Source: an uncultured Rhizobiaceae group bacterium
GTDB taxonomy: Bacteria > Pseudomonadota > Alphaproteobacteria > Rhizobiales > Rhizobiaceae
Assembly: GCA_937958815.1 (NCBI GenBank)
Contig: CALGMR010000008.1
Location: 1 to 64,000 of the forward strand
Length of the DNA: 64,000 nucleotides
Direction: 5' to 3'
The notes under the pieces were generated by a model. It searched no databases. It had not been told where the DNA came from and saw only the letters and a program-made list of their open reading frames with translations. The stretch's first letter is position 1; each line of letters opens with the position of its first letter. The position numbers were made by a program, and so were the translations under genes. Positions 15,151-23,930 of this stretch are shown piece by piece.

Positions 15151-18030
15151 ATGGTGTGCAAAAACGCACTTGTTATAGACTGGCCATGGGCTATCGTCTT
15201 TCTTAGTAAGCGACAGGTCTGTTCTAAGTGCCACGCACAAAGTGTTTTGGGGTATGAATTGCAAAAAGACAGCACACTAGCTGATGCCAACAGGCCTTTA
15301 GATCGTAACTTGCTGCGATATGTTTGGCGCCATACACGGGCAGAGCAAATCTGGATTCTGTGCGTTATTATTGCGTCAATGCCCACTTATTTTCTTGTGC
15401 TGGACCTTCCCGTGCGCATCATCAACCAACCCATTCAGGGGGATGGTTTTGAAGTGGTTGGCGCCACGCAAGAGTTTTTGAATATTTCGTTTTCATTGCC
15501 AGAATTTTTGGGCGGTGGTGAATTTGTCATTTTCCAAGGCTTTGAGTTGGAACGTTGGCCATATTTGATTGCCTTGAGTTCACTCTTCCTTGGTCTCGTT
15601 TGCATCAATGGCCTGTTTAAATTTTACATCAACACCTACAAAGGCCGGTTGGGAGAGCGGATGTTGCGCCGTATGCGCTACCAATTAACCGACCGTGTTT
15701 TGCGCTTCCCTATTCGCCATTTCAAGCGGGTGAAGGGATCGGAAATTGCCTCAATGGTGAAAGACGAAGTTGAACCTTTTGGCGAGTTTATTGGTGATGC
15801 ATTCGTACAGCCTGTTTATCTGGGTGGGCAGGCTTTGGTGGCCTTCATTTTTATTCTCAACCAGAGTTTCTGGCTCGGGATGATTGCCGTTGCCATCATC
15901 GCCATCCAAGTGACACTCATTCCATATTTGCGACGACGTGTTCTTGAACTTGGTCGCATGCGTCAACTGACGGCACGATTGCTGTCCGGTCGTATAGGCG
16001 AGATTGTTGATGGCATATCGTCTATTCACGTGAACGACACTTCTAACTACGAACGAGCAGAACTTTCCAGCCGTTTGAGCAAAATTTTCTTCATTCGTTA
16101 TGAGTTGTATCAGCGGAAATTCTTTATCAAATTCATCAACAACTTCTTGGCTCAACTCACACCGTTTTTGTTTTATGTGGTGGGTGGGTATTTTGCGATA
16201 CGCGGCACATTGAATGTTGGCCAATTGATTGGTGTCATCAATGCCTACAAAGACCTTCCATCGCCTATCAACGGCCTGATCATGTGGGATCAAAAGCGCG
16301 TCGATATCAACATCAAATATGCTCAGATTGTTGAACAGTTTAATGTCAAAGACATTGCTGATGCAGAATTGCAGCAGCACAGCGATGATCCTGTAGAGCC
16401 GCTCAGTGGAGAAATTACAGTCAACAATTTGAATGTGGTCGATGATACCGGAACGGCTCTGGTTGAAGATGCTGATTTCACAATTCAAGTGAATGAGATT
16501 GCCTGCGCCATTGGCCCACTTGGTTCAGGTGCGGGTGCCACAGCGGACACTTTGGCTGGATTGATCAACCCAACTTCGGGCCGCGTTTTGTTGAATGGTC
16601 GTCAGCTCACCGAGCTTCCACAACGCATTCGAGGCAGACGTTTTTCTTATTGCGGCAGTGATGCCTACCTACCTCAGTCAACTCTTTTGGACACGCTGCT
16701 TTATGTAAACAAACACGCGCCTTTGCGAGAAACAGACGGCTCTAATATTCCTGAAAAATTGCATCCAAAGACACGAGCGGAAGCGAGAGCGTCCGGAAAC
16801 ACATTGCTGAGTTATTACTCAGATTGGGTTGACTATGAAGCCATGGGTATTTCTGGCCCTGAAGAGATCTACGAGAAAGTTCGTGACGTTCTGGACGTGG
16901 TTGAAATGGGGGAAACCGTTTATCAACTCGCCATGCGTCAGGAATTAGACCCAAAACAGCACCCAGAACTCACGGACAAGCTCGTTGAAATGCGCAAAGT
17001 GTTGCGAGAACATATTGACGGGTCTGAGATTAGCAATCTTGTCGAGGTATGGGATTGGGACGGGTACAATGAACACGCCACGATTGCTGAAAATCTTCTG
17101 TTTGGTACGGCAGTTGAAACAGATGATGTGCAATCAAGCCAACTTGTCGAGAACGAATATCTTCGTTCCATTCTCAAGAAGGACGGATTGGATGAAGCTA
17201 TGTTCGACATGGGGGTGGAACTTGCCGAGACCGCGATTGAACTCTTTGCCGATTTGTCTCCGGGCAACCCGTTTTTTGAACAGTTGAATTTCATGAGCCC
17301 CGAGCAACTTGAGTTGTATGGACCTATTGTTGCCCGTGCCAAGGAATCTGGTTTTGTGGGCGTCAATGAATCAGATCGCCGAATGTTGCTCCGGCTGCCA
17401 TTTGACTATGTTGAGCCGCGCAATCGCCTGCGACTTCTCGACCAAGAATTGCAGGACAAGATTCTCCAAGCCCGCCACAGCTTCCATGAAAACTTGCCGG
17501 AAGAGATGCAAAACTCGATCTCTGTTTACAACTTGGACACTTACAATCCTCACAACTCGGTGCAGGACAATATCTTGTTTGGGCGTGTTGCTTACGGCTC
17601 GTCAAATGGGCCTGAAAAAGTCCAAGCATTGATCAAAGCATTGCTGCGCAAAAATGGTATGGATGATGATCTATTTAGAGCTGGCCTTAATTTTGATATT
17701 GGCACGGGTGGCAAGCGACTTTCCGAGGCCCAAAGACAGCGTCTTATTCTAGCACGCGCACTTTTGAAAAGAGCTGATCTGATGGTTGTAAATCGAGGCT
17801 TGAATGCCTTGGATGCAAAATCTCAAGAAGTGCTGATCAAGCGGGTGATTGAGCGCGCGCGTGGGGAAAATGGAACCAAACCTTTCGGTATCTTCTGGGT
17901 GCTCACATCGCCCAGAATGGCAAGCGAATTTGATCAGGTTTTTGTTTTCCAAAGACAACGACTTACTGCCAAAGGGCATGCAAGTTTGCTGGAAGATACC
18001 GACGATTTTTATAAGCAATTGGTGGCATGA
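15151..18030 (+). CDS. Fused ABC transporter (membrane domain plus degenerate ATPase domain with large insertion)
   Basis: 959 aa track ORF; TM domain, then GPLGSGAGATADTLAGL in place of Walker A, signature LSEAQRQRLILARALLKRADLMVVNRGLNALD. Exact start uncertain, possibly downstream of 15151. Confidence 0.82.
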   Translation: MVCKNALVIDWPWAIVFLSKRQVCSKCHAQSVLGYELQKDSTLADANRPLDRNLLRYVWRHTRAEQIWILCVIIASMPTYFLVLDLPVRIINQPIQGDGFEVVGATQEFLNISFSLPEFLGGGEFVIFQGFELERWPYLIALSSLFLGLVCINGLFKFYINTYKGRLGERMLRRMRYQLTDRVLRFPIRHFKRVKGSEIASMVKDEVEPFGEFIGDAFVQPVYLGGQALVAFIFILNQSFWLGMIAVAIIAIQVTLIPYLRRRVLELGRMRQLTARLLSGRIGEIVDGISSIHVNDTSNYERAELSSRLSKIFFIRYELYQRKFFIKFINNFLAQLTPFLFYVVGGYFAIRGTLNVGQLIGVINAYKDLPSPINGLIMWDQKRVDINIKYAQIVEQFNVKDIADAELQQHSDDPVEPLSGEITVNNLNVVDDTGTALVEDADFTIQVNEIACAIGPLGSGAGATADTLAGLINPTSGRVLLNGRQLTELPQRIRGRRFSYCGSDAYLPQSTLLDTLLYVNKHAPLRETDGSNIPEKLHPKTRAEARASGNTLLSYYSDWVDYEAMGISGPEEIYEKVRDVLDVVEMGETVYQLAMRQELDPKQHPELTDKLVEMRKVLREHIDGSEISNLVEVWDWDGYNEHATIAENLLFGTAVETDDVQSSQLVENEYLRSILKKDGLDEAMFDMGVELAETAIELFADLSPGNPFFEQLNFMSPEQLELYGPIVARAKESGFVGVNESDRRMLLRLPFDYVEPRNRLRLLDQELQDKILQARHSFHENLPEEMQNSISVYNLDTYNPHNSVQDNILFGRVAYGSSNGPEKVQALIKALLRKNGMDDDLFRAGLNFDIGTGGKRLSEAQRQRLILARALLKRADLMVVNRGLNALDAKSQEVLIKRVIERARGENGTKPFGIFWVLTSPRMASEFDQVFVFQRQRLTAKGHASLLEDTDDFYKQLVA

Positions 18031-18077
18031 GATGTTAATGCGTCACCAAAAGACTGGTTTTAAGAAGGGGAAGTGCA

Positions 18078-18554
18078 ATGAGTAAGCTGAAGGATGAAGT
18101 CGATCTTTTACGATCGATACCAATGTTAGCAAACTTGCCAGCCAACAAACTCAAGCTGCTGGCTTTTGCCTCAGATCGTGTCTCGTACGCGCAAGGCGAT
18201 ACGCTGTTTCACCAAGGTGATGATGCTGATGCGGCCTATATTGTAATTTCGGGTTGTGCAGATGTTTTGGTTTCGCCAGATGGCGAGGCCGACCCTACTG
18301 CTGTGGCCCAACTTGGACCAAATTCAGTGATCGGTGATATGGCAATATTATGCGATATTCCAAGAACGGCCACCATTCGTGCCTGCGAAAACTTGGACGC
18401 TTTGAAGATTCATAAAGATCATATGCTGGATATGATGAAAGAAAGCCCCGCACTGGCGTTGGCTGTCTTAAAAGAGATTGTTCAGCGCCTTGCAAAGACA
18501 ACACAAGACCTCTCGGAAGCTCGAGAAGAAGTTGCAAAGTTGCAAGCAGGATGA
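18078..18554 (+). CDS. Cyclic nucleotide-binding domain protein
   Basis: 158 aa; FHQGDDADAAYIVISGCADVLV ... GDMAILCDIPRTATIRA phosphate-binding cassette; no DNA-binding HTH apparent. Confidence 0.88.
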   Translation: MSKLKDEVDLLRSIPMLANLPANKLKLLAFASDRVSYAQGDTLFHQGDDADAAYIVISGCADVLVSPDGEADPTAVAQLGPNSVIGDMAILCDIPRTATIRACENLDALKIHKDHMLDMMKESPALALAVLKEIVQRLAKTTQDLSEAREEVAKLQAG

Positions 18555-23333: not shown

Positions 23334-23351
23334 TAAGGAAGTTCTTTATTC

Positions 23352-23930
23352 ATGGATGACCTGTCAATTGAAACGCGTGATGGCCTTCCACAAGAATGGA
23401 AATTCTTGCTTGAAAAGCACCCTCGCGACAGCTGGAAGAGCAACACGCAACTTGGTGAACACACCAAATTCTGGCTTTCGATTCACCGTCACTTCCGCAT
23501 AATGGGTGCCCTTCTCACGTCCCAAAGCAACGCTTATCGTGAAGGGCAAATTGACAGCGACACGTTCCGAACCAACATGGCCCCACGGCTGCAGCAGTTT
23601 TTACAAACTCTGGACCATCACCATCGCATCGAAGATGGCGTTTTCTTTCCCAAATTTATGGCGGCTGAGAAACGTTTGATAAAGGGAATCGAATTGCTCG
23701 AGGAAGATCACCACACCATCGATGCAGAAGTTCATCATATGATCAGCGTCGCCAACGCGCTGTTGCAAACAGAACCGGCAGACAGTGAAGGTTTGAAACG
23801 CAATGGAGAAAGTTTCGCTATTTCCAGCGACCGGATTGTAAAACTGCTTGATCGACATTTAGACGATGAAGAGGAAATTGTTGTTCCACTTATGATCGAC
23901 CGTGGCGAAGTGGAACTTATGAGCGAGTAA
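23352..23930 (+). CDS. Hemerythrin HHE cation-binding domain protein
   Basis: 192 aa; LGEHTKFWLSIHRHFR, LDHHHRIEDGVFFPKF, LEEDHHTIDAEVHH, LDRHLDDEEEIVVP. Confidence 0.84.
   Translation: MDDLSIETRDGLPQEWKFLLEKHPRDSWKSNTQLGEHTKFWLSIHRHFRIMGALLTSQSNAYREGQIDSDTFRTNMAPRLQQFLQTLDHHHRIEDGVFFPKFMAAEKRLIKGIELLEEDHHTIDAEVHHMISVANALLQTEPADSEGLKRNGESFAISSDRIVKLLDRHLDDEEEIVVPLMIDRGEVELMSE

What the first reader, a model, noticed from the sequence alone, without database searches (positions are those of the whole stretch)
15151..23930. Seven-gene cAMP/redox locus: pseudo-ABC exporter, cNMP-binding protein, MBL hydrolase, two adenylate cyclases, pentapeptide-repeat protein, hemerythrin
Seven same-strand genes with short gaps (47, 24, about 95, -4, 15 and 18 nt with my chosen starts) put production (two class III cyclases), sensing (stand-alone cNMP-binding domain without HTH), possible turnover (HxHxDH metallo-beta-lactamase fold, a fold that includes class II-type cAMP phosphodiesterases), a membrane ABC-like protein and two metal/redox modules (2Fe-2S, hemerythrin) in one unit. 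Family assignments are from motifs; the proposal that they form one oxygen/redox-responsive cAMP signalling or export system is inference.
Basis: partly seen in the sequence, partly recalled or inferred. Interest (0 to 1): 0.86.

Follow-up and report, generated by a model that had tools for sequence, protein, structure and literature searches.

The report
cAMP-linked dead exporter in glycan pathway
The locus is real and its core is an old, widespread alphaproteobacterial module: a membrane exporter that has lost its ATP-burning parts, paired (sometimes fused) with a cAMP-binding-type protein, next to cAMP-making enzymes, and almost always inherited together with one set of sugar-transferring enzymes, so it most likely lets cAMP control an unstudied surface-sugar pathway.

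Summary
The seven same-strand genes and their gaps are as described.

Core: A, an ABC-exporter-like membrane protein, and B, a stand-alone cNMP-binding domain. In all 112 related loci B follows A, and in five loci the two are one polypeptide. In 112 A proteins the NBD looks dead: no Walker A Lys, no Walker B Asp-Glu pair, H-loop degenerate. B keeps the cyclic-nucleotide-binding Arg.

C (RNase Z/YhfI-like hydrolase) and E (CyaC-type diheme/2Fe-2S adenylate cyclase) are co-inherited with A. D is an atypical cyclase (transition-state Arg replaced). F (pentapeptide) and G (hemerythrin) are local additions.

New: A is co-inherited with a glycosyltransferase (GTa). Of 395 alphaproteobacterial genomes, 131 have both, 6 only A, 2 only GTa, 256 neither; 88 of 127 pairs are head-to-head. 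In Rhizobium plasmids A, B, cyclases, DUF3095, the GTs, a deacetylase and an MBL hydrolase lie within about 32 kb. Here the GTs are elsewhere in the genome.

Best reading: redox-gated cAMP acts through B on a dead ABC scaffold to control an uncharacterised glycan pathway. The linkage is strong; the mechanism is inferred.

The parts
15151..18030 (+). Gene A: catalytically dead ABC-exporter-like protein. ABC_membrane domain plus degenerate NBD; Walker A Lys, Walker B Asp-Glu and H-loop lost; Q-loop/helical segment found 2-3 times. Real start probably about 15247-15290.
18078..18554 (+). Gene B: stand-alone cyclic-nucleotide-binding domain, 158 aa, no HTH; phosphate-binding cassette Arg and G-[ED] kept.
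   Evidence: fused to A elsewhere
18579..19442 (+). Gene C: MBL-fold hydrolase of the RNase Z/YhfI/PhnP branch with complete two-metal site (HxHxDH, H168, D189, H252/H253).
   Evidence: co-inherited with A
19537..20877 (+). Gene D: membrane-anchored class III cyclase with metal Asp, Lys and Thr kept but transition-state Arg replaced by Lys. Longer start at 19468 possible.
20874..22595 (+). Gene E: CyaC-type adenylate cyclase: cytochrome-b-like membrane anchor with five invariant His, 2Fe-2S ferredoxin with four invariant Cys, complete class III catalytic residues.
   Evidence: PMC4821796, PMC10463352
22611..23333 (+). Gene F: pentapeptide-repeat protein with signal-peptide-like N-terminus; genus-level addition, not core.
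23352..23930 (+). Gene G: hemerythrin-domain protein; patchy even within the genus, not core.

Best explanation
A and B form one membrane receptor: an ABC-exporter scaffold (presumably a homodimer) that cannot hydrolyse ATP, with B (or a fused cNMP domain) as its cyclic-nucleotide-sensing subunit. [quoted passage not shown] D modulates or partners E. C probably removes the signal or a related phosphodiester. cAMP-loaded B changes the conformation of A, and A in turn controls a membrane step of a glycan pathway run by the co-inherited glycosyltransferases GTa-GTb-GTc-GTm, comparable to PilZ or PelD control of exopolysaccharide synthases by c-di-GMP. Shown here by computation: the A-B unit, loss of ATPase motifs, co-inheritance and linkage with GTs, E and C. 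Inferred: cAMP as ligand, B acting on A, A acting on the glycan pathway, redox control of E, C as phosphodiesterase.
For: B directly follows A in 112/112 loci; after collapsing at 70% identity, 38 of 39 have B within 400 bp and the 39th (L062) is a fusion. Five A-B fusions, Pfam-confirmed for L177. In 112 A proteins none keeps the Walker A Lys or the Walker B DE pair. B's binding Arg is invariant and Glu/Asp kept in 112/112. A cyclase lies within 10 kb in 25 of 39 dereplicated loci against 2.4 expected. E is in 23/27 A+ and 0/26 A- genomes, C in 23/27 and 1/26, while a GH25 neighbour shows no association (12/19 vs 12/26 genera, p=0.37). GTa and A: 131 both, 6 A only, 2 GTa only, 256 neither, p=2e-94; 88/127 pairs head-to-head within 600 bp. 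Within the window's own family, 11 A+ and 11 A- genera match GTa presence exactly. E has CyaC's reported catalytic spacing K-T-N-R 74/7/4 (PMC10463352).
Against: No biochemical data. In this genome and its genus the GT cluster is unlinked to A-B (contig C3 here), so shared regulation is not evident from position. Neither the GT products nor the end product of the pathway is known. B could bind cGMP or another nucleotide (the cassette has Thr after the Arg, a position that in PKG favours cGMP; own knowledge). Some A-B loci have no cyclase or MBL within 10 kb, so the cAMP source may be any of the genome's several cyclases. Fused A-B loci of one lineage (L177-L180) show no cyclase, MBL or GT nearby in my searches, though those genomes do carry GTa elsewhere.
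Confidence: 0.5

Rival explanations
1. A is a passive or regulated membrane conduit (scramblase or flippase) for the lipid-linked glycan made by the GTs, gated by cAMP-B, rather than a regulator of synthesis.
For: The TMD resembles MsbA/TmrAB exporters, a fold that includes lipid flippases; GTa is adjacent and head-to-head in 88/127 genomes; most invariant positions of A lie in the TMD half.
Against: No ATP hydrolysis is expected by motif, so no directed transport; a MATE/Wzx-like flippase gene lies near the GT cluster in this genome.
Confidence: 0.22
2. A-B is a cAMP/redox signalling complex whose glycan link is indirect (shared lifestyle, e.g. surface attachment); it signals to other targets.
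For: In the window's genus and several others A-B and GTs are unlinked; Rhizobium loci also abut a cyo quinol oxidase and an oligopeptide ABC importer.
Against: Near one-to-one co-inheritance and head-to-head arrangement with one specific GT across the class.
Confidence: 0.15
3. cAMP exporter plus sensor.
For: Exporter-type TMD; mammalian ABCC4 exports cAMP (own knowledge) and its chains are among the PDB sequence matches.
Against: Walker A, Walker B and H-loop are lost in all 112 A proteins; no half-transporter with a competent NBD is linked to the run.
Confidence: 0.04
4. A Pycsar-like anti-phage system (cyclase plus cNMP-binding membrane effector, with C related to the phage nuclease Apyc1).
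For: PADLOC cyclase and effector models hit D, E and B through their shared domains; Apyc1 structures are among C's fold matches.
Against: Class-wide distribution with conserved neighbours, hits only through generic domains, E has the adenylate-cyclase K/T residues, co-inheritance with GTs.
Confidence: 0.03

Closest known systems
Sinorhizobium meliloti CyaC and the ferredoxin-linked class IIIb adenylate cyclases (PMC10463352; cluster 1 in PMC4821796)
   Same: E has the cytochrome-b-like membrane anchor with conserved His, a ferredoxin between membrane and catalytic domain (as in cluster 1), and the K/T/N/R spacing 74/7/4 reported for CyaC.
   Different: CyaC is reported to work with transcription factors Clr and CycR; here the cyclase gene is in a run with a dead ABC exporter and a cNMP protein without HTH. 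The CyaC sequence itself was not compared.
Type IV ABC exporters (MsbA, TmrAB, PCAT1)
   Same: Fold and TMD sequence family of A.
   Different: Walker A Lys, Walker B DE and H-loop absent in the orthologs; extra Q-loop/helical segments; long insertion after TM1; companion or fused cNMP domain.
Pseudo-ABC regulators such as SUR1 of the KATP channel (own knowledge)
   Same: Works like: ABC exporter fold used as a nucleotide-responsive regulator instead of a pump.
   Different: No homology beyond the ABC fold; SUR still binds nucleotides in its NBDs; here sensing is by a separate cNMP domain.
c-di-GMP receptors of exopolysaccharide systems (BcsA-PilZ, Alg44, PelD; own knowledge)
   Same: Works like: a second messenger acting directly on a membrane component of glycan production.
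   Different: Other messenger, other receptor domain, other membrane protein; effect not shown here.
RNase Z/ElaC, B. subtilis YhfI, PhnP, Apyc1 (MBL fold)
   Same: C shares fold and metal ligands.
   Different: 11-20% identity; scores far below the NCBIfam RNase Z and PhnP cut-offs; substrate unknown.

Membership tests
Functional ABC exporter | ABC_membrane TMD and exporter fold | tested here: met
   Pfam PF00664 5e-17; model pLDDT 80.6; MsbA/TmrAB matched with TM-score about 0.6 over the target
Functional ABC exporter | Walker A Lys | tested here: not met
   0 of 112 sequences (Ala 73, Gly 23, others)
Functional ABC exporter | Walker B Asp and catalytic Glu | tested here: not met
   Asn in 109/112 at Asp, Arg in 97/112 at Glu, no DE pair
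CRP/FNR transcription factor (how B is sometimes annotated) | C-terminal HTH | tested here: not met
   158 aa, only PF00027 found; CRP model 48.6 bits vs cut-off 266
Cyclic-nucleotide-binding domain | Phosphate-binding cassette Arg and Gly-Glu/Asp | tested here: met
   Arg 112/112, Gly 112/112, Glu 92 or Asp 20; binding itself not testable
CyaC-type redox adenylate cyclase | Four intramembrane His for two hemes | tested here: met
   His 38, 42, 79, 116, 161 in 36/36 ungapped relatives
CyaC-type redox adenylate cyclase | 2Fe-2S Cys and intact class III catalytic residues | tested here: met
   C302, C308, C311, C346 invariant; K429, T503, N510, R514
CyaC-type redox adenylate cyclase | Heme binding and quinone-dependent activity | not testable with these tools
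   needs spectroscopy and assay
Canonical class III cyclase (D) | Transition-state Arg | tested here: not met
   Lys 20, Asn 3 of 23 sequences
RNase Z (C) | NCBIfam equivalog cut-off | tested here: not met
   82 bits vs 252; 80 vs 293
Cyclic-nucleotide phosphodiesterase (C) | Two-metal site in a fold known for cNMP hydrolysis | tested here: inconclusive
   metal ligands invariant; YhfI, AMP/GMP-bound Brucella MBLs and Apyc1 among fold matches; activity not testable
Pycsar defence system | PycC cyclase with dedicated effector in defence context | tested here: not met
   only generic-domain hits; class-wide co-inheritance with GTs
YtfE/RIC di-iron repair protein (G) | NCBIfam cut-off | tested here: not met
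   19.7 bits vs 204.7

The most novel reading that the evidence does not exclude
A new class of second-messenger receptor: an ABC exporter that lost ATP chemistry, with extra Q-loop/helical segments in its NBD, became a cAMP-gated membrane switch (A-B, sometimes one chain) that directly controls assembly or transfer of a previously undescribed glycan present in roughly a third of sampled Alphaproteobacteria, wired to respiration through diheme/2Fe-2S cyclases.
Probability: 0.4. Interest if true: 0.88.

Novelty: new variant of a known kind. Interest (0 to 1): 0.74.

Why it matters
Bacterial cAMP is usually described as acting through CRP-type transcription factors. A conserved, non-transcriptional cAMP receptor made of a dead ABC exporter would be a different output, directly testable in model organisms that carry it (Sinorhizobium meliloti pSymB, Rhizobium johnstonii 3841 pRL11). 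It would also give a physiological target for CyaC-type redox cyclases, point to an unstudied surface-glycan pathway co-inherited with it across the class, and give a bacterial case of a transporter fold turned into a regulator.

Tried and rejected
cAMP export by A: rejected as active transport on motif loss. F and G as core parts: rejected on distribution. The cyclase-like-protein paper PMC4886424 concerns another family (DUF2652) and does not describe this cluster. Pycsar: rejected. R. leguminosarum pRL110056 (reported as O-antigen biosynthesis, needed for root colonisation, PMC11103875) may be one of the GTs by position, but old locus tags could not be mapped, so it is not used as evidence. 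pRL110071 (attachment, PMC11406972) is probably outside the cluster. The repeat structure of the NBD is firm for the second and third copies (hhalign E 2e-13) and weaker for the first (E 7e-7 with the third, only 21 columns with the second).
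Full report
1. Promoter- and terminator-like sites inside the run are no more frequent than in shuffled sequence. The start of A is probably 100-140 nt downstream of 15151: the first ~40 residues are not conserved and carry in-frame stops in the closest relative.

2. A is a dead ABC exporter. NCBIfam and PDB matches are exporter families (MsbA, PCAT1, CydDC), with NCBIfam scores far below cut-off. 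A model from 18 relatives (pLDDT 80.6, pTM 0.73) matches MsbA and TmrAB. Across 112 homologous sequences the Walker A Lys is never present, the Walker B Asp-Glu is replaced (Asn 109, Arg 97), and the H-loop is degenerate, whereas the signature-motif helix (L-[ST]-x-x-Q-R-Q-[KR]) is kept. The NBD is about 300 residues longer than usual because a Q-loop/helical segment recurs: copies 2 and 3 align with hhalign probability 98% (E 2e-13), copy 1 with copy 3 at 92% (E 7e-7).

3. A and B are one functional unit. tblastn finds B immediately 3' of A on the same strand in all 112 loci fetched (the two sets share some genomes). After collapsing at 70% identity, 38 of 39 have B within 400 bp and the 39th is a fusion. 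In L062, L177, L178, L179 and L180 A continues without a stop into a cNMP-binding domain; Pfam sees ABC_membrane and cNMP_binding in the L177 protein. B keeps the cassette Arg (112/112) and Glu/Asp (112/112) and has no HTH. A few distant relatives lie outside this pattern, for example TMD-only homologues in copper-type loci.

4. The cyclases and C. By sequence E belongs with the ferredoxin-linked class IIIb cyclases described in PMC4821796, and has the catalytic spacing reported for S. meliloti CyaC (K410, T484, N491, R495 in PMC10463352; K429, T503, N510, R514 here). CyaC is reported there to be redox-regulated through two hemes. Five anchor His and four ferredoxin Cys are invariant in 36 ungapped relatives. 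D keeps metal, Lys and Thr positions but replaces the transition-state Arg in 23/23 relatives; it may be weak alone or need a partner supplying Arg (inference). C has an invariant two-metal site and a model at pLDDT 94.3 closest to RNase Z and B. subtilis YhfI; PhnP, AMP/GMP-bound Brucella MBLs and the cyclic-nucleotidase Apyc1 are further down the list. A phosphodiesterase role is plausible and untested.

5. Neighbourhood and co-inheritance. Cyclase genes lie within 10 kb of A in 25 of 39 dereplicated loci, 2.4 expected from their genomic density. In 53 related genomes E is found in 23 of 27 with A and 0 of 26 without; C in 23 of 27 and 1 of 26. A negative control, the GH25 gene next to the run, shows no association (12/19 vs 12/26 genera, p=0.37). 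F was found only in the window's genus among the loci examined, G only in some of these.

6. The glycan link. Outside the genus, A-B is flanked by glycosyltransferase genes: GTa and GTc (GT28-C type), GTb and GTm (GT4 type), and a polysaccharide-deacetylase-like gene. In R. johnstonii pRL11 one 32-kb stretch holds B, A, GTc, GTb, GTa, an oligopeptide-type ABC importer, a cyclase, a nucleotide-sugar dehydrogenase, DUF3095, a 572-residue cyclase with E's length, GTm, the deacetylase and an MBL hydrolase. R. etli CIAT 652 pA and S. meliloti pSymB are similar, the latter beside LPS/polysaccharide genes. Testing GTa as a marker: in 53 relatives, 26 have both A and GTa, 1 only A, 0 only GTa, 26 neither (p=3e-14; one genome per genus p=1e-11). 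In 395 genomes drawn across the class, 131 both, 6 only A, 2 only GTa, 256 neither (p=2e-94), and 88 of 127 placed pairs are head-to-head less than 600 bp apart. These p-values ignore phylogeny, but inside the window's own family 11 A+ and 11 A- genera match GTa exactly. The window's genome has the GTa-GTb-GTc-GTm cluster on another contig.

7. Interpretation. What is shown: a conserved A-B unit, loss of ATPase motifs, and a tight tie to one glycosyltransferase set, to CyaC-type cyclases and to C. What is inferred: that B binds cAMP, that cAMP-B acts on A, that A controls synthesis, flipping or transfer of the glycan, and that C ends the signal. I give about 0.9 to A-B being one unit, about 0.85 to a functional tie with the GT pathway, and 0.5 to the full mechanism.

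8. Novelty. The parts are known kinds; the arrangement was not found described in the library searched. I rate it a new variant of a known kind (second-messenger control of a membrane glycan pathway, pseudo-transporter as regulator), with the possibility that it is a new class of receptor.

Noticed in passing
window 19537-20877: D orthologs replace the class III transition-state Arg by Lys (20) or Asn (3) in 23/23, with the other catalytic positions kept: a conserved atypical cyclase subfamily, possibly needing E as partner.
   Followed up: partly
L184 9543-10781 (-), L185 9531-10727 (+): TMD-only homologues of A without any NBD, in loci with multicopper-oxidase-like and copper-type genes.
   Followed up: no
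L061 9561-11285 (-), also L096 and L141: A 575-residue calcineurin-like phosphoesterase lies between B and C in some loci; a second candidate phosphodiesterase.
   Followed up: no
L200 (G000 contig C3) 6759-9131 (-) and 17431-18897 (+): The own-genome glycosyltransferase cluster is flanked by a GGDEF-EAL protein and a MATE/Wzx-like flippase, so c-di-GMP may also act on this pathway.
   Followed up: no
L045 11867-13120, L104 11517-12722, R. johnstonii pRL11 73256-74482: DUF3095 proteins recur near A-B; function unknown.
   Followed up: partly
window 29154-30995 (-): A further class III cyclase domain with a long C-terminal region, outside the run.
   Followed up: no
window 25124-25771 (-): A small pair resembling a Doc/Phd-type toxin-antitoxin module next to the CoxE-like gene.
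   Followed up: no
L073 (Plasticicumulans, a gammaproteobacterium by my knowledge): A-B with an E-type cyclase, GTm-like, deacetylase-like and DUF3095 genes outside the Alphaproteobacteria, suggesting transfer of the whole module.
   Followed up: partly
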